NCBI GenBank assembly: GCA_030248135.1
Contig: JASANC010000231.1
Location: forward strand, 26,503 to 90,502
DNA length: 64,000 bases
Reading direction: 5' to 3'
From: Theristus sp. LFF4_11
Lineage: Eukaryota > Nematoda > Chromadorea > Monhysterida > Xyalidae
In this document: positions 51,716 through 64,000 of the stretch, in pieces
How positions within the stretch are numbered: position 1 is the stretch's first letter
Layout of the letters: every line of letters starts with the position of its first letter
Position numbers and translations under genes: made by a program
Notes under the pieces: model-generated
Database searches by the model: none
Told to the model about the DNA's origin: nothing
What the model saw: only the letters and a program-made list of their open reading frames with translations

Positions 51716-51769
51716 CGTTCTAGTAGTATATATGGATGACTTCGCGCGTATTTTTCAAATCACTATTGA

Positions 51770-52560
51770 CAGCTCACTTAATCCGGGTGGTGTGTGGATG
51801 ACTTCCCGCGTATTTTTCAAACCATGCTCACTTAATCCACGTGGTGTCTGGATGACTTCACGCGTATTTGTGTTCAGTTCGGGTGGTGTGTGGACGACCA
51901 CACGCGTATGACAGCTCACTTAATCCGGGTGCTGTGTGGATGACCACACGCGTATGACAGCTCACTTAATCCGGGTGGTGTGTGGATGACTTCACGCGTA
52001 TTTTTCAAACCATGCTCACTTAATCCACGTGGTGTCTGGATGACTTCGCGCGTATTTCTGTAGTGCCCGTGTATTTTTGCAAAAGCTGTGTTTGGTGGGG
52101 GTGCCGGTATATGCGTTTCAGGTGCGAACGCAGTTTGAATGTCACACGCTCACTTAATCCACGTGGTGTCTGGATGACTTCGCGCGTATTTCTGTATTTT
52201 TGTGTTTGTTAGTGTTTGGTGGGGGTGCCGGTACATGTGTTTCAGGTGTGAACACAGTTTGAATGTCACACGCTCACTTAATCCACGTGGTGTCTGGATG
52301 ACTTCGCGCGTATTTCTGTATTTTTGCAAAAGCTGTGTTTGGTGGGGGTGCCGGTATATGCGTTTCAGGTGTGAACACAGTTTGAATGTCACACGCTCAC
52401 TTAATCCACGTGGTGTCTGGATGACTTCGCGCGTATTTCTGTATTTTTGTTTGTTAGTGTTTGGTGGGGGTGCCGGTATATGCGTTTCAGGTGCGAACAC
52501 AGTTTGAATGTCACATGCTCACTTAATCCACGTGCTGTCTGGATGACTTCACGCGTATTT
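51770..52560. repeat. Tandem satellite upstream of the WRN-like gene
   Basis: Two unit sizes share CTCACTTAATCC...GTGGTGT-TGGATGACTTC-CGCGTATTT. Short units of about 50 bp fill 51770-52060. Longer units of about 115-130 bp (52060-52560) add GTGTTTGGTGGGGGTGCCGG and GTTTGAATGTCACACGC. The array begins about 55 bp upstream of the start codon of the WRN-like gene, so it overlaps its likely promoter. Confidence 0.9.
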
Positions 52561-52737
52561 GTGAAACAACGCGCAGTGTATTTTTGACCGGTTATGTTGT
52601 ATGAAATTTTCTGTTTTTTTGTGCAATCATTGATTTTTATGTACTCGCCGATTCGTTTGCAGTGTTGTTGTTGTTGGAGCACAGAGACAAAAATAACCAT
52701 ACAACAAAAAATCAGTGCTTAAAAGGCAAAAATCTTT

Positions 52738-53467
52738 TTATTTGTTGGAGCATGCAGTATTCTTTTTGTGCTTCTCCATACAACCGCGTCGTGCGAATGT
52801 CGCGCCACATCTCGAGCACGTGAATTTTTCTCCTTGGTGAGCAGATCGCACGTGCCTGAGTTTTTTTTACGTGAGTATAATCTTGAGCAGCGACTCAATA
52901 ATGAAAAATAATAATCTTACTCAGCCGTTTTGAACGGCGACTGAAATGTCTTGCCGCAGTGGCAGCATCTTTTCTGATCAACGTTCTCATGCTCCGCGTG
53001 ATCTCGGTTCATATGCCAGCTCAGGAATCGCACTGACTCGAATTTCGAACTGCACAACACGCAGTGAAACTGGAAATCGAATACCATTTTTTATGAGTCA
53101 ATTTACCTCAAGTCAATCAAATTTTACATTTAGAAAAATTATACCGTATTACCTCTATTAAACCCCCCCCAAAATTAAACCCCCCCCCCCCCAAAATAAA
53201 CCCCCACCCCCAGAAGTCGCTGAAGAAATAAACCCCCATGGGGTTTTATTAGAGGTAATACGGTACGTAGCCAACCTTTCGTTTCAGCTGCCGAAACTCG
53301 TCGACTGCTTCGGCGTGCTCTTTTTCGATTTTTTCCGGAAAATCAGCCCATCCAACATACCACAGCAACAGGTAATTTGATTTGCCGTTGATCGTTCGTT
53401 CTCCGACTATGCGGAGAAATTCGTCTTCCGTTTCAAACGTTGGTCGCTCAATGACCCGTGTCATCAT
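52738..53467 (-). CDS. Chromodomain plus C2H2 zinc-finger protein
   Basis: Three exons, 53467-53276, 53069-52921 and 52855-52738, join in phase to 459 nt (152 aa). The N-terminal part is chromodomain-like: FLRIVGERTINGKSNYLLLW, then YVGWADFP and an acidic/basic helix. Three fingers follow: CVLCSSKFESVRFLSWHMNRDH (C2H2; seen as CVLC...HMNRDH), CCHCGKTFQ...HVRSAH across the second splice, and CSRCGATFARRGCMEKHKK, which ends in a Cys instead of the last His. A small nuclear DNA- or chromatin-binding protein is likely. A poly-C MITE sits in intron 1. It lies head-to-head with the virus-like region; whether it belongs to that element or to the host is open. Chromodomains also end Polinton integrases, but no integrase core is here. 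Confidence 0.65.
53142..53265. mobile_element. Poly-C MITE, family M3, short copy
   Basis: Same ends (TACCGTATTACCTCTATTAA) and internal AGAAGTCGCTGAAGAAATAA as 25822-26272, but only 124 bp. It starts 10 bp past the exon 1 donor of the chromodomain gene. Confidence 0.9.
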
Positions 53468-53635
53468 GACCTGTTGACGTGTAATAAAAAAGAAGTATAA
53501 GAATTGAAAAAAAACAGAATGGCACGTGTTGATGTGTGCGCGTGTATTTATAACATTCTGGGTCGAATGGTTAAAAAAAGAGTTTAGCTGGGAGTAGTTT
53601 AACTATAAGCTTTTACAATTCGTGGTCTGCTCATC

Positions 53636-53825
53636 CTGTTGATTTGCGTGCAAAGTCCCGTCTTCAGTTTTTGTGCCCGTTCCAATGATTTGAGTGCAAA
53701 GTCCCGTCTTCATTTTTTGTACCCGTTTCATCGATTTGAGTGCAAAGTCCCGTCTTTATTCTTTTGTAAGCGTTCTGATGATTTACATGCAAAGACCTGC
53801 CCCCTTGTTCTTTTGTACCAATCCT
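53636..53825. repeat. Tandem repeat, about 58-bp unit, 3-4 copies
   Basis: Units of GATTTGAGTGCAAAGTCCCG-TCTTCATTTTTTGTACCCGT with changes. Between the two divergent genes at 53467 and 54507. Confidence 0.85.
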
Positions 53826-54002
53826 CGCACGTGATATTCATTTTGTATTAGTTTTATTTTATACTCACGTTAGACTCAGGTAAGATTACTTCTCATGGTA
53901 CGGCAGCGTTGTTTTCACAGTGAAACCGTTAAGGCTAACGTATATTCATTCATCTCACTGTGCGTTTTTCATGTTTACATGTCTACTGATAAATACGGTG
54001 TC

Positions 54003-54365
54003 GCTTCTGTTTTGATGTTCAGAAATCAGTAAGACTCACCTGCCACATGCGGATTAAAATTTTTTGTTTGGGCATTCATACAGTTCAGTTTGTGCTTGTC
54101 AATTCTGTTTTGATGTTCAGAAATCAGTAAGCCTCACCTGCCACATGCCCCGTTGAAATTTTTGTTTGCGGCATTCACACATTTCATATTGCGCTTGCGC
54201 TTGTCTAGTGTCAAAGACAATGTTGAGAAATCAGTAAGCCTCTTTTACATAAAATAATTTTGGTGCCAGGTTCGGATTGAAATTTTTGTTTGGGCATTCA
54301 TACAGTTCAGTTTGCGCTTGTCAATTCTGTTTTGATGTTCAGAAATCGGTAAGCCTCTTTTACGC
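54003..54365. repeat. Tandem repeat, about 110-bp unit, three copies
   Basis: Units contain TTCTGTTTTGATGTTCAGAA, ATCAGTAAGCCTC, GAAATTTTTGTTTGGGCATT and CAGTTTGCGCTTGTCAATTC. The array lies just upstream of the first gene of the virus-like region and may hold promoter elements or an element end. Confidence 0.85.
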
Positions 54366-54506
54366 GATTAAGCTGCTGCATTCGGGTTTGAAAACGTATT
54401 TATTGGGGTTGTTTGACGCTGACCAGCATTTCAGTTTTGCGTTTCTCTGTTTTCATGCTCGCTTCTCTACCTGTTTTAAGTTCGTACGTTTGAATCAGAA
54501 ATCAAA

Positions 54507-55198
54507 ATGGCAGATCTCCCCGAAACGCAGCCCCAAGATATGATGTACTACTGCGGTGGTGAATTTGAAGAGATTGCTCAAGAAGAAATGAGAAAAGAAA
54601 GTCTCTTCAAAGAAGCCGCTGAACACAAGCGAGTCACTGAGCTCAAGCAGTACAGCATGAGTCAACCTGTGATGATCGACGACGATCTCGGTGTGCGTTG
54701 GTAAGCAATGCAGCAAAAGGCTATCTTTCATTATTCTAGACCAATGCCATTCTCACACAGGACCATGTCGGATCGCCCCACGGTGCTTCGTTTGGGTCAT
54801 TACGTACCTGTGATGCGCAATGGGAATACTGAATGGAAAACTGATGTTAACGCAAAGTAAGATTCAAAAAAAATGTTAAAATATAATTAACTATGCGACA
54901 TATATTCTTTGTTTACAGGTCTTCTATCCCACTGACCACAACTCAGTACCACACGTTCATTTCAAAAATTCCCGAAATCAACCACCAGTTTGCTGAAACG
55001 CTCAAAAACGAAAAGGAGCGTCGCGATCGTGTTGAGGCTGAACGGCTGCTTGAGCAGGAACAACGCAAGAAAGTCGAGCAGCCTCAGCAGCAGGCAGCAC
55101 AGGCGCAGTATCACCGTGCTGGTGTGAAAAAGTTTCATGGAAGTTATGGTGGAAACAACAACTACGGAAGCGGAGCAAAGTTTTCTCGCGGATACTGA
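54507..55198 (+). CDS. Virus-like region, possible PC4-like ssDNA-binding protein
   Basis: Exons 54507-54700, 54761-54856, 54919-55198 join in phase (570 nt, 189 aa). Start is the ATG of MADLPETQPQ. The acidic N-terminus is followed by a segment with the order of a PC4/p15 fold: strands TVLRLGHYVPVM and TEWKTDVNAK, then IPLTTTQYHTFISKIPEIN, comparable to the 'GISL...QW..L' end of PC4. A charged Glu/Arg/Gln coiled stretch follows, then a Gly/Asn/Tyr-rich tail. PC4-like proteins bind single-stranded DNA. The homology is by pattern only; motif residues are not strongly kept. Two short introns (60 and 62 nt), both phase 2. Confidence 0.55.
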
Positions 55199-55528
55199 TA
55201 AAACACTGCATTGCATTTTAATCTTAATCGCAACGTTCTTTGCTGATTGTTTTTATTCATTCCTTCCAGTTTAAATTCTTTTCAGTTCAAGTTTAAATTC
55301 TGTTTCGCTATTTGTTGCAGTTTTGCTTTAATGTAATGTGCTTTTTGATTTAAGCATTATCTCCAATATATTGTGCTTATTTCCAATGTTTCTTTCGCAT
55401 TGTGTCTCTCACCATTTGCGCACGCTCTGCGTTGCTCGTTCTATTGTGCGATTGCTCGCGCTATTTTTAACTTGAACATTATCAATGAATTTGTGTAATG
55501 TTTGAATAAAATTTAGGTTTAAAGAGAC

Positions 55529-56702
55529 ATGAGTGAATACGAAAGTGATTCATCAGCTGATAACGGCGAAGAGCAACAATTGTGGCAAATTGCAACAAAA
55601 AGGCTGGCTGAAGAAAACGAGAGGTAAATTAATGTTTTAAATTCTCCCATGGGTGCAACTATGTTCCTAATAAAAACAACTTTTCAGACGTCGACCGCAA
55701 CCTGTGCAAAACATGGAAGGAGACATGACGACTCAAATATGGCAGTTGACAACTGGCGCCGAAAACGTTGTACGTGAACTGCCACTAACATCGACGACAA
55801 AGAAGCAGGTCGACACTGTACTCAAAAAACTCGTGACTCAATACGGCATGCACAACCTGATATTTGCGTATAAACTCTGCCAAGAAATCTTGAATACGCT
55901 GCAAATTACTGGCATTGACGCATATCAACTGCTGAGCAGCAAGCAAATGATTGACAGGTAAAGTTTTGAATGTTTTTAAGGTTAAGTCGTTTAGAATAGT
56001 AACCTTGTTTGTGTATTAAGCATGGCAAACATGAACCAAGCCTGCTTTGAAATACTGGCGGACGGTGCAAACAGCTCCGATGTGGTTGATATTGCTGAGT
56101 TGTTGGAAAAATATGCCAGCATGAAAGCGAACAATCAACGCAAACGCAATCGCGCTGGTGATGATAACGATGCCCTAGGAGCAAATAAACGACCAGGTGA
56201 TGTGGGCTACGGAGAAAATTATGATGGTTTAGAGCAAGACGATACAGATATGCTGCAGTTTATTCAAGATAACTCGTACATTTTCACTGAATCTGAATGG
56301 TGGTCTAAAAACAAAGTTTTGTTAGTGTACAATTTACCTGTACTGTACAAAAAAGTGGATTTTAAATTGATTAACGAAACTGTGCACATGTTATTTAAAA
56401 AGTATGGAACCAGACTGATGCGCATTCAGATCAGAGGAGGGTGTATAGTTAAAGACGATGAAACTGATGATGTTTTTTATTTGTATCCGAGTGTAAACAC
56501 AACTCTAGATGAAAATCAATATTTTTATCCGGTGTTTATTGATCGCTTGAAAGAATCAAAAGAAATGATAAGAAATAGCTTGGAAGATTTTCAGGAAGTC
56601 GAATTTCTGCAAAAAATCCGTGATCGAATCGCATCGACCAGTAATCAGACATCGTCAGTGCTATCGAATATTGAATTTTATTGTATAATGTCACGTACAT
56701 AA
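55529..56702 (+). CDS. Virus-like region, unknown protein or N-terminal part of the polymerase
   Basis: Exons 55529-55623, 55688-55957, 56021-56702, in phase, with stop at 56700-56702 (1047 nt, 348 aa) if read alone. The start has an acidic N-terminus. A helical, hydrophilic middle (KKQVDTVLKKLVTQYGMHNL) leads to a basic patch (NNQRKRNRAG), an acidic linker and an alpha/beta-looking C-terminal part (KVLLVYNLPVLYKKVDFKL). No family recognised. The next coding block opens only 22 nt after the stop, behind an acceptor. A donor (GTATAA) at about 56683 would keep phase, so this may be the N-terminal region of the polymerase gene instead of a separate gene. Introns 64 and 63 nt, both phase 2. Confidence 0.5.
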
Positions 56703-56724
56703 CTTTATTAAAACTGTTTTTTAG

Positions 56725-59700
56725 CTCGGAAATCATCTATTAAAACATTTGCTTCTGTTGTCCGTTCGCGAAAACATGCAAATCGTTCACTATTATCGTT
56801 ATTCTGCTGCTTATTCTATTCAACTGTAACCGATAATTGTTTGCTTAAATTAATTAAAGAAGAAATGGAAAAATGTTCGTTTCTACCAGATTTTGAATTG
56901 AATGACTGTAATATTAATGAAATTACTAAAATCGCATCTGTATTCCAATTGTCTGTTTGGATATTCGATAAAAAGACAAAAACGATAAAAAATTCTGTGG
57001 ATTTCTTCTCACCGAATCGAGCAGTTCAAATACAATACAACGAAAAAACTAAACTATTCGAACTAATTCAGCGTGTCGATACTTACTTTGCGGTACATCG
57101 TTGTTGTTTCTGCTTTGAACAATTTGCTTTCAAGCAAGGATTACATAAACACTATTTGAGATGTGCCGGTAAAAAGCATTTTGAAAAAACTGGTTTACGA
57201 CTACCGCCTCAGGAGACAGAAATCGTTAACGAAACCGGTCCTTGGCTGCCGAAACAAACTGTTTTTGACAAAGTCAGATCATGCGGAATCGATTTAACAC
57301 AGGAGAAAGAGCAAGAAATGATGAGAACTCTGTTTTGTTGCATCGACAGCGAATCATATTTGCAAAAGTTGAGCGAAGGAGATGCTGAGAGAATGAAAAC
57401 GGAAAAGTCTGTTGTTGTCGAAACACATGAAATGTGTTTTTTAGTGGTTTCGGATAACATTCGGCCGTACGAGAATGGAAAACCTCAAGTCAATGTCTTC
57501 TATCCAAAACATGAGCACGATCGGTTGTGGATATCGGATTGTATTGAGCTTTTGATAACTATCAGTGAAGAGGCAAAAGATATCTACATGGAAAAAGTGA
57601 AATGGTTATTTGATTTATTGGCCGAACGACAGAGTATGGCTAAATTGCAGAATAAACAGGGTTGGTACTTTAAATTGGAAGCTGCTGAAAAAGCTCTCGG
57701 CCGATACTACAGTGTCCTACCAGTCTATACGTGGAACGGGAGCAAGTACGACATCGCTCAATTTCGAAATGCTGGTTTTTTGGCTGTACTAAATACAATG
57801 AATGGACCTATTCGAGCGGTCAAAAAAGGCAACCGATATCTGTCTCTGAGTTCCCAAAATTTATGCTTCTACGATATCATGCTTGTTACAGGTAGGTGGT
57901 CTTACCACTTAGTTAATTTTGTATACACGTGTGCACAATTTTATTCGTTCAGGCACTCGACTTTCTTATTCTGCGTACCTGTCAAAATTCGGATCTCAAA
58001 GTGATCACTATAAAGCATCATTTCCGTATGCTGCTGTGCGAAAATTTCAAAACTTCAAGGATTCGATACCGAGCTACGCAGCGTTCAACGATAGTTTAAA
58101 ACTGACAAATAGTTTGGATTATGATTTCCAGCGATACACATCAGCCCTTGAAATGTACAATGGAAATTCAAAGTCAGCTTTGCTGGCTTGCGGGTTTGAC
58201 AGTATTCCAGACAACGGCTTTAGGAAATACATAGAATTGCGAAAGTTTTGGACAAGCCACGGGCTCACAAGTTTGCTTGAAATTTTAAAACATTATTGTG
58301 TTCAAGACTGTCAACCTATGGTGGCAATGGTTGAAAACGTACTAAAAGTATACCGCGAAGAAAAAGTAGATCTAACATCGTATATGACAATATCGAGCAC
58401 GATGGCAAATGTAGCAAGTCGATGTGTCGCAGAACAGTCGGCTGTGCGAGTGATGCGATTCACCGGTCAATTTCGTGAGCTAGCAGAGTCATCAAAAGTT
58501 GGCGGCTGCTCTCAAGTAAGTGATAATATATTAATGATTTGTACACAATGGCAACGGCGTATCAATGGGTTCTGTTTAGGTGTATAAACGCTACGCGTCA
58601 GTTGGCGAAACACGTATAAAACCACATATTTTCAGCGATCAATCCGAACTCTGTCAATCTATTCAGTGTTTTGACCTAACGTGTAAGTTTCAGCAATAGT
58701 AAAACCAATGATTGCTTGTTTTGATTGATTTTTTGTTTAGCTTTGTATGCGTGGGGCGCAGCTCAACCGCAATATGTCGGTATATATGCGCAACGAGATC
58801 GAGACAATAATTATAGACCAGAACTGCTCGGTTGCAAACGAACAAGCTCAGGTGAGTAGTGATACAGTGCTAAGTCTGCCAATGGCAGACAATGATACAC
58901 TGCTAAGTCTGCCGTCCTACCAGTGGCAGACATGAAAGAGTCGCGGGGCGTCCTACCAGTGGCAGACGATGACATACTGCTAAGTCTGCCAATGGCAGAC
59001 GATCATACCGAGATAGGAATCGCGTCCTACCAGTGGCAGACGATGACACACTGCTAAGTATGCCGTCCTACCAGTGGCAGACGATGACATACTGCTAAGT
59101 CTGCCGTCCTACCAGTGGCAGACGATGACATACTGCTAAGTCTGCCAATGGCAGACGATGATACAGCGCTAAGTCTGCCGTCCTACCAGTGGCAGACGAT
59201 GACATACTGCTAAGTCTGCCAATGGCAGACGATGATACAGCGCTAAGTCTGCCGTCCTACCAGTGGCAGACGATGACATACTGCTAAGTCTGCCAATGGC
59301 AGACGATGATACAGCGCTAAGTCTGCCGTCCTACCAGTGGCAGACGATGACATACTGCTAAGTCTGCCAATGGCAGACGATGATACAGCGCTAAGTCTGC
59401 CGTCCTACCAGTGGCAGACGATGACATACTGCTAAGTCTGCCAATGGCAGACGATGACACACTGCTAAGTCTGCCGTCCTACCAGTGGCAGACGATGACA
59501 TACTGCTAAGTCTGCCAATGGCAGACGATGATACAGCGCTAAGTCTGCCGGCTTCGAATACGTGCAATACATCGACGGTTTTTCAGCATTGAGCTGGCTC
59601 GAATACGTGCGACGGGTTGACGACAGCGTTGTTTCTATTATACAGCATGCAGGTATGCATAAATAAATTGTGGACAAATGTTTCTCTTGTTTCTATATTT

Positions 59701-61584
59701 CTCATTCAGGTAATTATGGAGAAAAAACTGTCTACTTGACTGATTCGAGTGGAAGCGGCCGTGTTGTGAGATTTGACGGCTATTGCATTGATATGCATGG
59801 TGGGAAAAGAGCTTTTGAATATAACGACTGCAATATACGATCACATCATGGTCAATGTAACCGTCACTTGACCGATGTGACCAAAAAAATACTTTACAAT
59901 GGAAAACCGCTGGAAAAATGGAGATTTGAAAGCGATGCTCGAGAGAAACTGATTCGAGCAAATGGTTACCACCTAACCGTAATGTGGAGCTGCGAATGGC
60001 GCGACATGTTGCGAGATAAAACTGTTGCCGAACTCGTGCACATGGTTGACGTTGGCCCACAAATCCGCCAAAAAGAATATACGCAGAACGAAATGATTGA
60101 GGGTAAAATTTCGTGTTAAGTGTGGAAGTGAACTTGCAAAAAAGTGTTTTCCTGTTTTAGCCATCGAAAACGGTGTTGTTGAGGGGTTTTGCATAGCCTC
60201 AATCGTGTTGCCTGAACATTTGCGCAGTCGACATGATGAGTTCCCAGGTAAATTTTAAAAAAAGTCGGTGTACACTCTCTCATATCAAGTTGAACATGTT
60301 TTTAGCATTGTACAAAAAAGTGTTGATTCCGGACGAGATGATAATCGATCGAATGAAAGAATATGCCTCGAAGCACAACATCAAGCGTGTCAAGCAGAAA
60401 ACATTGGTCACGTCGTTTTTTGTTACGGATGCTTTTCTGAGCACAACCTATGTTCGTTACGTAATGGAATTGGGCTATGAAGTTGTTGATTTGCCTACTG
60501 TGTTTCAAATGAACAAAGCGACAATTTTCCACGATTTTATTTACGATCGTTGCGAGAAACGACGCGCTTGCGCGGAGTCTGGTGAAAAATTGCAGGCTGA
60601 AAGTTACAAGCTGCAACTGAACGCAGGTAATAAGCAATGAAAGCGTGTGTGTGTGTGTACGGCTCTGTGCGCAATCGCTAAACTTTTTTCAGGTGTTTTC
60701 GGGTCGAGTTTAATTCGAGCAGACAAGTTTCGCACTACGAAATTTTGCACGACGGAGCAGTTTGAAAAGAAATTTGCCAGTTGTAGCAGATTGGTTGATG
60801 TTTTACCAGCAGATGTTGGTGATGGTGCAGATTCTTTAATTGAAGTCAGCATAAAACCACGAAAAACTTATCGAAAAAACCCCGTCACGATTGGTCTTGA
60901 AGTAAGTGAGATGCTGGGCTTTATTATATGAGTTAAAAATTGAAAGTGTTTTGTTTAGATATTGTGGCTGGCCAAAGTTGCTTTGCTTCGTCTTTGCGCT
61001 GAAAAAATACCTGAATGGTTGGAGCCGTGGTCATATGAATTTATGAATTCGGATACGGATAATGTTTGCCTATCGCTAGCACGGAAATCGATTGAAGAAT
61101 GCGTTAAACCAAGCAAGTTGGCACAATTCAAACGAGAAGAGCCTCAGTTTTTTCAAATGTCGCCTTCACAGCGGTATACTCCAGGTAAGCTTTGTGTATA
61201 TGGCTATGGAAAAGTTTTGCACATTGCTTGTTTTTAGGTCTTTTTCACAAAGAATATGACGCTGAAACGGCTGTGTTTTTGGCGAGTAAACTTCACTTGA
61301 TTTGCAAGGCAGACAGTCAAGGAAACATGCAAAACGTTAAAATCGCTGCCAGAAGCATACCACGTGTTTTGTCGAATATAACTCATTTTTCTCTGACAAC
61401 ATTTCTGGATGCTTTATTCGATAGACACGACGAACAAATTACAACATATGACACTGGTATACGTCAAAAAAATTGTGAAATGGTTACATTTTTACAAAAA
61501 AAGCAATGTTTAAATGCATATTACATTAAGAGAAAATTACTGCCACCTGACTATATTGAAACAACTACGTATCCTGATTTGTAA
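56725..61584 (+). CDS. Family B DNA polymerase, protein-primed type (Polinton/adintovirus-like)
   Basis: Replicative polymerase of an endogenous virus-like element. Exons: 56725-57891, 57953-58515, 58580-58682, 58741-58851, 59587-59652, 59710-60102, 60161-60247, 60306-60626, 60693-60901, 60959-61184, 61238-61584; about 1197 codons in one phase. Seen: a Cys/His site (CCFCFEQFAFKQGLHKH), Exo I (CIDSES), Exo II (TWNGSKYD), Exo III (YCVQDCQ), palm motif A (CFDLTSLY), motif B region (KLQLNAGVFG) and motif C (NSDTDN). All catalytic acidic positions appear present and no frameshift is needed, so it is not visibly decayed. The 5' end is unsettled: the first exon opens with an acceptor at 56722-56724, although an internal ATG exists at 56865. 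Eight of ten introns are phase 1; nine are 53-66 nt, and one is 735 nt. It ends tail-to-tail with a 20-bp overlap onto the next minus-strand gene. Confidence 0.88.
58852..59586. repeat. Minisatellite filling a polymerase intron
   Basis: About ten units of roughly 73 bp built from GTCCTACCAGTGGCAGACGA, TGACATACTGCTAAGTCTGCC and AATGGCAGACGATGATACAG. Each unit contains the dyad GTCTGCCAATGGCAGAC. It lies between a GTGAGT donor (58852) and a TTTTTCAG acceptor (59586), so the intron is about 12 times longer than its neighbours. Confidence 0.9.
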
Positions 61585-62074
61585 TTTTTCGCTTCAAAAT
61601 AAAGTCTCTGACACGTTGATCTGGAATTAGCAAAGTGGGCATTCCACTCTTTGCAATCAAGTCAATAAAAAAGTTAAATCCAATAATCTTGTTTATTTGA
61701 TCTTGTTGTTGTTGTCCAGGTAGGTTTGGTCTCGGTTTTGTGACTGAAATTAGTAAATCGACCAGATTCGACGCCTTCACTGGTTTGCCGTCAACAACAA
61801 GTTCACCGTTTGTGTAATTAAACGCAAAAGAAGGTTGTTTAATCAAATGCGATAAAAGAATAGCAGAGCAGGCTCTTTGGCGTAAAGGAACAGCGGATAA
61901 CAACTCTGACATTACACGGTCGGTTAGATCGACTGTTTCCTCTGTTTGAGTTGAGCTAGTTTTTGTTGGCTCCACTGCAACTTCAATGGGCTGGTGGTGT
62001 TGCTGTTGTTGCTGTGTTAAATCTCGGTATCGTTGCACATCCAAAACCACCATTGGTTTGAAAGCCGTCGACAT
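61565..62074 (-). CDS. Virus-like region, small conserved-type protein
   Basis: Single exon, 169 aa, start MSTAFKPMVVL. A Gln/His-rich stretch is followed by a compact domain: SAVPLRQRACSAILLSHL, FAFNYTNGELVVDGKPV, SNLVDLLISVTK, then FFIDLIAKSGMPTLL. By pattern this resembles an uncharacterised protein often found next to the ATPase in Polinton/adintovirus elements, with a 'P..r..A..ll..l / W...G...dG..i..SNi.dL' layout. Function unknown. Its start overlaps the end of the frame at 61983-62330, and its stop overlaps the polymerase stop by 20 bp. Confidence 0.65.
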   Translation of the reverse strand: MSTAFKPMVVLDVQRYRDLTQQQQQHHQPIEVAVEPTKTSSTQTEETVDLTDRVMSELLSAVPLRQRACSAILLSHLIKQPSFAFNYTNGELVVDGKPVKASNLVDLLISVTKPRPNLPGQQQQDQINKIIGFNFFIDLIAKSGMPTLLIPDQRVRDFILKRKITNQDT

Positions 62075-62330
62075 TTTTTAAGCTCGCAAATATTCGTTTA
62101 AACTTTTGACGTTTTAATAAGAAAAGCCGACAATCGTTAGCATTGGCACATGAAATAAAAGCGGACAAATCACGTCGAATTTTAACGTTCAACTCGAGGT
62201 CTACCGCCGTTTTAGCACAGCACAATATAATTCGAAAAAGGGAGTCGTTACAATGCGTTAATATAGATCGTTTTATGTAGGGTGAAACTGATATATCTAG
62301 TAAAACGTCAAAAAGCTTTTGATTGCTCAT
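61983..62330 (-). CDS. Virus-like region, small protein overlapping the ATPase gene
   Basis: 115 aa, start MSNQKLFDVLLDIS. The start codon overlaps the ATPase stop as ATGA. The likely conserved part is YIKRSILTHCNDSLFRIILC to LFLLKRQKFKRIFASL, helical and basic at the end, similar in layout to a short protein found beside ATPases in Polinton-like elements. The last ~30 codons overlap the next gene's start and are Thr/Ala-rich, so they may be incidental. Function unknown. Confidence 0.55.
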   Translation of the reverse strand: MSNQKLFDVLLDISVSPYIKRSILTHCNDSLFRIILCCAKTAVDLELNVKIRRDLSAFISCANANDCRLFLLKRQKFKRIFASLKNVDGFQTNGGFGCATIPRFNTATTATPPAH

Positions 62331-63001
62331 GGTTGAAATACGTAGCCTTCGTTTTCGCCAAAAAACACGCCAGTTCTGAGCATGAATTTAGAGTCTCGCG
62401 TCGAAATTACAAAATAATCTCTATCTAAAGCATTAAAACAATAATCTGAAACTTGAGCTAAAAATGAAACTGGTTTGTGTGCAAAGTAAATGCGCGACAA
62501 ATTTGCGAGTGCGTCGCTTGTGCAGTTTTTCATGACTATTATATAATGAGCATTCTGACGAATTGTGGGCAAAACGGGGATAGACCTGTCGAATAAACTG
62601 TGTAGCAAAAAAATGTTCATGCTTTTGAAATGATGTGTTAGATTGGTACAAAGACGTCTGATGAGCTGTGACACATTCGGTTTTTTGAACAGGTAGAGCA
62701 AGTCATCGAATACGTTAACAACGATGCCGTCTACATTGGAATTGAAAAAATTGGTATCATTCAAAGCCTGTTCTGGTATCCCGCAAAACGTTTCCACTGT
62801 ACAGTCTAATGACTCCGATATCTGATCGTATATTGGCTGATAGACGTCATAAAAAATTCTGCACAACCCTATTTTTTGACCAGGTGCTGAAAAATTAAAA
62901 TGTTGCAATAGCTTCGCGCAGTAGCTCGTTTTGCGGGACTGACTAGCACCAACAAATACTAATAACGCGTTTTGTCGAAAGAAAAACTCATCGGCGTTCA
63001 T
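62327..63001 (-). CDS. A32-like genome-packaging ATPase (FtsK/HerA type)
   Basis: Single exon, 224 aa, start MNADEFFFRQ. P-loop region LLVFVGASQSRKTSYCAKLL; Walker B-like IVVNVFDDLLYLF; then CTNLTHHFKSMNIFLLHSLF and IRQNAHYIIVMKN, the arrangement of Polinton/adintovirus and poxvirus A32-type packaging ATPases, which pump genomes into capsids. Odd: the Walker A Gly before the catalytic Lys is Arg (SRKT), which may lower or abolish ATP binding or be a lineage variant. It heads a run of three overlapping minus-strand genes (63001 to 61565), which suggests one transcript. Its presence argues that the region derives from a virion-forming element. Confidence 0.82.
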   Translation of the reverse strand: MNADEFFFRQNALLVFVGASQSRKTSYCAKLLQHFNFSAPGQKIGLCRIFYDVYQPIYDQISESLDCTVETFCGIPEQALNDTNFFNSNVDGIVVNVFDDLLYLFKKPNVSQLIRRLCTNLTHHFKSMNIFLLHSLFDRSIPVLPTIRQNAHYIIVMKNCTSDALANLSRIYFAHKPVSFLAQVSDYCFNALDRDYFVISTRDSKFMLRTGVFFGENEGYVFQP

Positions 63002-63094
63002 AATGTAGTCGTTGATGAGTGGTTACTGTAATGACAGTGATTTTGGTGAACGAAACAAACAGCAATTTAAACGTCCCCCTAGTAAAAAAAAGAC

Positions 63095-63214
63095 TCACTC
63101 GTATATCAGCTCACTCATTGACATGTTGACGTAAGCCTCTTGCTGCAGCTGACGTTGTCGGCGTTTTCTAAGCGCATAAATCAATGCACCTCCAGCGATA
63201 GCGATACCAACAAT
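63095..63214 (-). CDS. Possible terminal exon of a small membrane protein
   Basis: After an acceptor (CCTTTTAG) the frame reads a short hydrophobic helix (IVGIAIAGGALIYAL), a basic stop-transfer cluster (RKRRQRQ) and an acidic/polar tail to TGA. Upstream exons were not found. It lies just upstream of the ATPase gene on the same strand. Low certainty. Confidence 0.35.
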   Translation of the reverse strand: MVGIAIAGGALIYALRKRRQRQLQQEAYVNMSMSELIYE

Positions 63215-63234
63215 CTAAAAGGTGACTGAGGTCA

Positions 63235-63400
63235 ACCACGCATTATGCAAATGAACCTCTCGAAAAAACACGAACCGAGCCAAAAAAACGGAACCAAGGG
63301 AAAAGGAGGGGGTTTTGGGGGAAGTGGGGGGCGGGTTAGTTTCGGTGCTGAAAACGGAAACTAGATGTATCTCAGTCTGTACTAAAAACGCCTAAAATGC
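63235..63400. other. Purine-rich low-complexity spacer
   Basis: Contains GGGAAAAGGAGGGGGTTTTG and GGGGAAGTGGGGGGCGGG. No gene seen. It separates the minus-strand and plus-strand genes of the virus-like region. Confidence 0.5.
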
Positions 63401-63499
63401 AACAAAAAAACACACCGCAATACAATCGGTGCTCCAGTCGAATTTTCTTATTTAGCAAACTGTCAGCCTGCAAACATTCGCAGTTGTACGGCCACGAGA

Positions 63500-63848
63500 T
63501 TGATTGAAGGTTTGGCAGCACTGCGATTGCATCAGAGTCAATCTTTGTCGAGCACACTGTTGACATTTTTACAACGTAATCAATTATCCGAATACGATAC
63601 TATAAATCATCCAGTTCAAAAGGCGCGAGTAAACTTTGCTCTGTTTATTGCCTATTCTTTGCTTCGCATATTATTAATGGAGAGTCGCCAACAGCAGTAT
63701 GTCAGCGAGCTAAGACGATATAAACATGTAGGTTTTAGTAAAGTAATAGCAATTCTATAGCAGAAAATCTCTTTTTTTTCAGATTCGGTTTGGTTGTCGA
63801 AACACGTTGATATTCGAAGCGCATTTTTCACATCATCATCTCGGATAG
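63500..63848 (+). CDS. Virus-like region, unknown small protein (5' end unclear)
   Basis: Two exons, about 63500-63727 and 63783-63848, join in phase 0 across a 55-nt intron (GTAGGT donor, T-rich acceptor) to a TAG stop. No ATG begins the visible frame, so the true start or an upstream exon lies to the left. The product is mostly helical (LSSTLLTFLQRNQLSEYDT, VNFALFIAYSLLRILL) with a His/Phe end. No family recognised. Confidence 0.45.
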
Positions 63849-63881
63849 ATAAGCGGCATTCAAAACTGAAGACACTTTACC

Positions 63882-64000
63882 ATGACCGCTGTGGTACATA
63901 CAAACATACGGCTGCCAGAAAACGCTAGCTATGCATATCCTGTTGGTGTTTCACAAACAAACATTGTATTTTTGATTTTGTTCGACGTTAATGCTATAAA
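63882..64000 (+). CDS. Start of a further gene, cut by the window edge
   Basis: An ATG with ACC before it opens a frame that stays open to the last base (39 codons: MTAVVHTNIRL, then NASYAYPVGVSQTNIVFLIL). Too short to identify; it could be a first exon of the next gene of the virus-like region. Confidence 0.35.
   Translation, partial: MTAVVHTNIRLPENASYAYPVGVSQTNIVFLILFDVNAI

What the first reader, a model, noticed from the sequence alone, without database searches (positions are those of the whole stretch)
54507..64000. Intron-rich endogenous Polinton/adintovirus-type element
A protein-primed-type PolB, an A32-like ATPase and small companion genes lie together, as in Polintons/Mavericks and adintoviruses. 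Their replication genes are normally intronless or nearly so, but here at least 15 short introns interrupt the plus-strand genes. The polymerase keeps every catalytic motif after splicing and shows no frameshift. Intact yet intron-filled genes suggest a nuclear-transcribed, possibly vertically kept or domesticated element.
Basis: partly seen in the sequence, partly recalled or inferred. Interest (0 to 1): 0.88.

Follow-up and report, generated by a model that had tools for sequence, protein, structure and literature searches.

The report
Intron-filled nematode Polinton, recently mobile
The right end of this stretch of worm DNA is one copy of a virus-like jumping element (a Polinton) whose polymerase gene is cut by many small introns, although a related element family in the same genome has none there, which makes it a natural test of how introns are gained in a mobile virus-like gene.

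Summary
Two plus-strand genes carry 15 GT-AG introns (2 + 13): 14 of 42-66 bases, one of 735. The contig ends with the window, so other copies in the same genome, a nematode, were read. It is a Polinton/Maverick: related copies supply a retroviral-type integrase, a major capsid protein, an Ulp1/adenovirus-type protease, 2.8-kb inverted repeats and AGTAGT termini. Three copies (window, C3676, C1865) have different left flanks and no substitution in the stretches compared (7,765 positions with C3676; 2,102 with C1865), so the family moved recently as DNA and is no domesticated gene. The window copy lacks about 436 bases that both others have; its protease and membrane-protein genes are broken, its polymerase is not.

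The new point is intron turnover. A homologous polymerase (C3402) in the same genome is one uninterrupted 1,181-codon frame; five other families keep 12 of 13, 9 of 13, 8 of 12, 5 of 10 and 3 of 12 scored window introns and add others. ATPase frames are uninterrupted wherever seen, capsid frames in 6 of 10 copies. Splicing itself is not shown (no RNA data); most gains and losses cannot be told apart.

The parts
51722..52560 (.). left terminus of the element (AGTAGTATATATGG...) and tandem repeats (46- and 124-base units), probably part of the left terminal inverted repeat
   Evidence: same terminus, different flanks in C3676 and C1865; tandem repeats. The window copy's right end is not held.
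54507..55198 (+). gene A: three exons 54507-54700, 54761-54856, 54919-55198; introns 54701-54760, 54857-54918
   Evidence: 100% in C3676, homologous pieces in C1969, C173, C1683. Function not identified.
55529..61584 (+). family B DNA polymerase gene, 14 exons, 13 introns: 55624-55687, 55958-56020, 56683-56724, 57892-57952, 58516-58579, 58683-58740, 58852-59586, 59653-59709, 60103-60160, 60248-60305, 60627-60692, 60902-60958, 61185-61237
   Evidence: two introns placed by eye
58949..59550 (+). 74-base minisatellite, 8 copies, inside the 735-base intron; the same intron is about 1,580 bases in C3676
   Evidence: C3676 length worked out from exon positions
61568..62074 (-). gene G, 169 aa, no intron, tail-to-tail overlap with the polymerase
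   Evidence: homologous in 8 fetched loci; frames of similar length (171 codons) at the like place in C338 and C3402, homology not shown
61986..62330 (-). small gene whose ATG overlaps the ATPase stop (ATGA)
   Evidence: matched in 7 loci besides the window
62330..63001 (-). packaging-type ATPase, 224 aa, no intron
   Evidence: 30 matches in the genome (this copy included), none with internal stops; alignment
63095..63554 (-). remains of a membrane-protein gene (exon 63480-63554 and a transmembrane exon near 63095-63218, the latter read by eye); first exon lost in this copy
   Evidence: deletion relative to C3676 and C1865
63548..63720 (+). truncated, frame-shifted remnant of the Ulp1/adenovirus-type protease gene
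   Evidence: two matches in two frames
63873..63998 (+). start of a 458-codon frame of unknown function, cut by the contig end
   Evidence: 95% identity over 42 residues with C3676

Best explanation
This is one copy of a Polinton/Maverick (polintovirus) family living in a nematode genome. It moves as DNA: the integrase inserts it and its own protein-primed-type polymerase copies it (mechanism inferred from the known family). While resident in nematode nuclei, the polymerase and its neighbour gene acquired, and partly lost again, short spliceosomal introns, to a density like that of nematode genes. Each new DNA copy carries the introns along, so polymerase expression depends on the host spliceosome. 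Shown: gene content in related copies, exon structure, intron presence/absence differences between copies, different left flanks with an unchanged core. Inferred: actual splicing, protein priming, polymerase activity, direction of most intron changes.
For: Integrase (rve 2.2e-7 in C1969; 2.2e-10 in C1022); 2,794-column inverted repeats at 96.85% in C1969; capsid profile of C3676 and kin matches a 561-aa 'F54H12.2-like' protein at 4e-25, over 366 columns by profile comparison; protease: Peptidase_C48 1.2e-4 in C1377, Peptidase_C5 0.0025 (below cut-off) in C1022. Mobility: three different left flanks; 0 substitutions in 4,352 + 3,413 aligned positions with C3676 and in 2,102 with C1865. Introns: C3402 polymerase is one 1,181-codon frame; the last intron (61185-61237) is found with its flanks only in window-type copies (5 places) and is absent at that point in C1969, C173, C2423, C2173, C1683, C485 and C50; the intron 57892-57952 is in window-type copies and C1969 only (sisters, 93/98, just under the tool's own mark) and absent in C173, C2423, C1683, C50, C485 and in the open frame of C3402. 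Host: 84 cuticle-collagen matches, 0 of 14 control genomes.
Against: No RNA evidence. No 6-base target duplication in C1969 (AGTGCT against TCATCG). Integrase, capsid and right inverted repeat of the window copy itself lie beyond the contig end. Outside the compared core the copies do differ: 98.9% over 52269-55000 with C3676, repeats included, 15 mismatches in 63002-63555 and 92-97% identity over the last 448 bases. ATPase, capsid and C3402 polymerase have no telling match to solved structures by sequence; both fold predictions failed (pLDDT 42.8 and 30.7). Deep branches of the ATPase tree are open, so gain or loss of most introns is undecided. The SL1 leader was not found with up to one mismatch.
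Confidence: 0.85

Rival explanations
1. The intron-rich state is ancestral for these nematode Polintons, and families such as C3402 lost all polymerase introns (for example through a cDNA copy).
For: Some introns are old: the one inside motif A (58683-58740) is in all 6 intron-bearing families scored (window, C1969, C173, C1683, C50, C485). An intron at residue 89 of the 59712-60101 exon is in C173, C1683, C50 and C485 but not in window or C1969, which looks like a loss. In nematodes losses exceed gains (PMC9169325, passages seen).
Against: The last window intron and the 57892-57952 intron would need several independent exact losses. Other genes of C3402 (ATPase, G-like frame, basic protein, a 309-codon frame that looks penton-like by eye) are also single frames, as expected of a virus without introns; its capsid gene is rearranged. 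Polintons elsewhere are thought to have few introns (recalled).
Confidence: 0.25
2. A domesticated, vertically inherited viral gene cluster serving the host.
For: Intact polymerase exons; nematode-like intron density (2.8 per kb, against 3.65 for C. elegans in PMC9169325).
Against: Multi-copy; three left flanks with an unchanged core; terminus present; related copies with integrase and capsid.
Confidence: 0.04
3. The apparent introns are decay or assembly artefacts.
For: The contig ends inside the element, and the window copy has a 436-base deletion and a broken protease.
Against: All 15 have GT-AG, exon lengths add up in frame, and the same exons are conserved at 43-79% protein identity in C1969 with spacers of 55-77 bases at 12 of 13 polymerase junctions.
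Confidence: 0.03

Closest known systems
Nematode Polintons (Polinton-1 of Caenorhabditis briggsae; Jeong et al. 2023, known to me only from reference lists, passages in PMC11071308 and PMC12220804, and recall; the paper is not held)
   Same: host phylum, long protein-primed-type polymerase, Polinton gene set
   Different: whether those polymerases carry introns, and how many, could not be checked here
Nematode Mavericks with a putative fusogen and cargo genes (Widen, as told in PMC10680173, one passage seen)
   Same: host phylum, Maverick gene set
   Different: no fusogen, wosp or krma gene was sought; the membrane-protein gene here is short and of unknown function; one related contig carries a deoxynucleoside kinase
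Adintoviruses (recalled; paper not held)
   Same: polymerase plus capsid plus ATPase gene set
   Different: no phylogeny done; integrase and 2.8-kb inverted repeats in C1969 point to integrated Polintons
Ginger1 transposons (PMC2836005, passages seen)
   Same: DNA transposons with a related integrase whose coding sequence can hold 1 to 4 introns
   Different: cut-and-paste, small, fewer introns; no polymerase or capsid (recalled)

Membership tests
Polinton/Maverick | family B DNA polymerase with exonuclease and polymerase motifs | tested here: met
   window exon below cut-off, homologous C3402 frame above cut-off; motif letters
Polinton/Maverick | protein priming (TP domain, TPR1/TPR2) | not testable with these tools
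   needs a whole-protein fold; joining the exons was left out
Polinton/Maverick | retroviral-type integrase | tested here: met
   in related copies: C1969 (31.5 bits, cut-off 32.6), C1022 (above cut-off), C1683 by homology; the window copy is cut off before this region
Polinton/Maverick | major capsid protein | tested here: met
   C3676 capsid profile to an F54H12.2-like protein, 4e-25; that this protein is a Polinton capsid is recalled; fold not shown; no Pfam or solved-structure match
Polinton/Maverick | packaging ATPase | tested here: inconclusive
   conserved P-loop/DD pattern, no decisive family match
Polinton/Maverick | Ulp1/adenovirus-type protease | tested here: met
   C1377 (1.2e-4, above cut-off) and C1022 (0.0025, below cut-off); the C3676 frame itself has no telling Pfam match and was named by its pattern of letters (recalled); broken in the window copy
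Polinton/Maverick | terminal inverted repeats | tested here: met
   C1969, 2,794 columns, 96.85%; only the left end is held for the window copy
Polinton/Maverick | 6-base target-site duplication | tested here: inconclusive
   not seen in the one copy with both ends (C1969); the window copy has no right end
Adintovirus | grouping of capsid and polymerase with adintoviruses | not tested
   no reference sequences held; no relatives found in viral contigs
Domesticated viral gene | single locus kept by descent, no mobility | tested here: not met

The most novel reading that the evidence does not exclude
Polymerase introns are kept because they help the element: in the nematode germline a spliced transcript resists small-RNA silencing, so an active Polinton lineage has been selected to gain introns in its integrated, chromosomally expressed polymerase gene, while capsid and ATPase genes, needed only after replication, stay largely uninterrupted. 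A second, different polymerase type in the same genome (C1022) is also split over several frames beside uninterrupted capsid, integrase and protease frames.
Probability: 0.2. Interest if true: 0.85.

Novelty: new variant of a known kind. Interest (0 to 1): 0.56.

Why it matters
Intron gain is rarely caught in the act. Here one genome holds homologous polymerase genes of virus-like elements with none to thirteen or more introns, some probably gained recently, since sister copies show the uninterrupted site, in an element that still moved recently. That allows direct tests of when and why introns enter a mobile viral gene, and whether splicing shields it from germline silencing.

Tried and rejected
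Host by SL1: Rfam SL1 (silent in the controls too) and the leader with one mismatch found nothing; cuticle collagens point to a nematode (that the domain is nematode-typical is recalled). Protein homologues of the ATPase and of the capsid alone: none; the capsid alignment gave one. Viral contigs: no relatives for ATPase, a polymerase exon or the 561-aa protein. Phage records: none for two capsids. Source of the youngest intron: only the element's own five copies. Papers: Jeong et al. 2023 and the adintovirus paper are not held. Searches touching introns or nematodes and Polintons listed no paper on intron-rich Polinton polymerases (PMC12220804 reports group I introns in protist Polinton-like viruses, passages seen), but the key papers are not in the library, so no claim of 'not in print' is made. 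Passages were also seen in PMC6431247, PMC3671162 and PMC4028283, which do not treat introns of Polintons. The uneven spread of introns over genes (15 of 15 in A plus polymerase against none in ATPase, G, capsid and the 458-codon frame; p 2.6e-4) was grouped after looking, and integrase, protease and membrane-protein genes also seem interrupted, so it is only descriptive. Rows not counted: some internal introns for weakly aligned pieces (A3 and distant A1; P2 in C2423; P3 in C1683 and C50; P4 in C2423 and two in C50; the second P7 intron in C1969; weak pieces in C2173, C338 and C3402) are taken as alignment noise. In one search the rows for C485 and C3402 failed; one search was used for C485, and the open frame for C3402.

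Full report
Where it lies. The window is C138:26503-90502 of a 159-Mb assembly, and the contig ends where the window ends.

The observation. 13 junctions have a single frame-consistent GT-AG choice; two were placed by eye. Fourteen introns are 42-66 bases; one is 735 bases and is mostly a 74-base minisatellite. The summed polymerase exon length is 4,620 bases, divisible by 3, and the density is 2.8 introns per kb. C. elegans has 3.65 per kb and nematodes range from under 1 to over 9 (PMC9169325, passages seen).

What it is. The element's left terminus is at 51722. The window copy cannot show its right side, so other copies were read. C3676 continues about 4.2 kb further and gives a 415-codon capsid frame, a 458-codon frame, a protease frame and a basic protein. 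C1969 (59% identical ATPase) has both ends: 44433-67572, about 23.1 kb (counted), with inverted repeats of 2,794 columns at 96.85%, AGTAGT termini and an integrase frame (rve 2.2e-7, 31.5 bits against a cut-off of 32.6). A profile of five capsid sequences found one protein with E <= 0.001 in the 5.8-billion-protein database (5,684 candidates scored), 'uncharacterized protein F54H12.2-like' of a mayfly, at 4e-25 (profile comparison over 366 columns). That such proteins are Polinton capsids is recalled; PMC4028283 (passages seen) describes the Polinton capsid in general. Proteases in C1377 and C1022 match Peptidase_C48 (1.2e-4) and Peptidase_C5 (0.0025, below cut-off), and the C3402 polymerase matches DNA_pol_B_2 at 3.1e-8. 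This is the gene set given for Polintons in PMC11071308 (passages seen).

Mobility. The window copy, C3676 and C1865 share the terminus but have three different left flanks; right flanks are not held. In the compared core there is no substitution: 4,352 + 3,413 aligned positions with C3676 (minisatellite left out; 2 indel columns, non-coding) and 2,102 with C1865. Outside it the copies differ: 98.9% over 52269-55000 with C3676, a stretch that begins with tandem repeats, 15 mismatches between 63002 and 63555, and 92-97% identity over the last 448 bases (read). Array length in the minisatellite intron differs greatly. The window copy lacks about 436 bases at 63554/63555 that both others have; this breaks the membrane-protein gene and the protease gene, which is also frame-shifted. 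So the polymerase is intact but this copy is not. The 30 scored ATPase matches in the genome have no internal stops (only best candidates are scored there).

Intron turnover. Exons were aligned one by one to six other families. Of the 13 window polymerase introns, C1969 has 12 of 13 scored; C173 9 of 13 (its first exon aligns weakly); C1683 8 of 12 (one of them a spacer of about 460 bases); C485 5 of 10 (one junction ambiguous, two off the contig); C50 3 of 12; C3402 0 of 10, its polymerase being one 1,181-codon frame, with the near-identical C338 copy open over 993 codons in the stretch fetched. C2423 is a near copy of C173 (98.6%) and is not counted apart; C2173 is partial (2 of 3 scored). 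Copies have further introns at other points: C1969 one, C173 four, C1683 four clear ones, C485 seven, C50 about seven. The intron inside polymerase motif A is in all 6 intron-bearing families. The last intron (61185-61237) occurs only in window-type copies (5 places). C50 and C485 have an intron about eight codons further on, at a distinct point. The intron 57892-57952 is shared only with C1969, the likely sister (93/98; the tree is rooted at the midpoint for drawing only). These two read best as gains; an intron at residue 89 of exon 59712-60101, present in C173, C1683, C50 and C485 and absent in window and C1969, reads best as a loss. Deeper branches are unresolved.

Which genes are cut. The ATPase is uninterrupted in the copies found, and G and the small gene next to it in the loci matched. 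The capsid frame is uninterrupted in 6 of 10 copies seen (C3676, C2173, C1683, C1377, C338, C1022); it is frame-shifted in C1969, broken up in C50, rearranged in C3402 and cut by the contig end in C2423. Integrase (C1683), protease and membrane-protein genes seem to hold introns (borders not mapped). In C1022 a different polymerase type (DNA_pol_B_2 4.8e-21) is split over several frames (introns not mapped), while its integrase, capsid and protease frames and a frame that looks penton-like by eye are whole. So polymerase genes look like the intron hot spot in two groups, with one group free of them.

Mechanism. The likeliest reading is a resident, DNA-mobile Polinton whose polymerase has taken on nematode-like introns and must be spliced by the host. 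Because copies move as DNA, introns travel with them. Whether introns are neutral residue of long residence or are favoured is open; a favoured role is suggested by work whose title says that introns are a barrier to nuclear RNAi in C. elegans (PMC5554785, title and start of abstract in the listing only).

Novelty. Nematode Polintons are known. A range of none to thirteen introns among homologous polymerases of one genome was not found in the listings searched, but the main nematode Polinton paper is not held, so this is rated a new variant of a known kind.

Noticed in passing
L028:4759-5364 (C1377): A deoxynucleoside kinase (Pfam dNK 2.9e-24) lies on the contig between the Polinton capsid/protease frames and a frame matching the polymerase's third exon: probable cargo gene of a Polinton.
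   Followed up: partly
window:58852-59586; L009/L010: The same intron is 735 bases in the window copy and about 1,580 bases in C3676, although the compared coding and other intron sequence has no substitution: a hypervariable minisatellite inside a polymerase intron.
   Followed up: partly
L030:3101-5144 (C3402): The capsid gene of this copy appears as two overlapping frames with a repeated middle part, unlike its near copy C338.
   Followed up: no
L033:5451-9399 and L034 (C1022): A second Polinton group in the same genome with a different polymerase split over several frames and whole integrase, capsid and protease frames.
   Followed up: partly
window:19386-19850: Exon of a host serpin gene on the minus strand (Pfam 2.1e-9).
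   Followed up: no
L012:6603-7004 and kin: A very basic, lysine/arginine-rich protein lies next to the capsid gene in several copies, perhaps a DNA-condensing virion protein.
   Followed up: no
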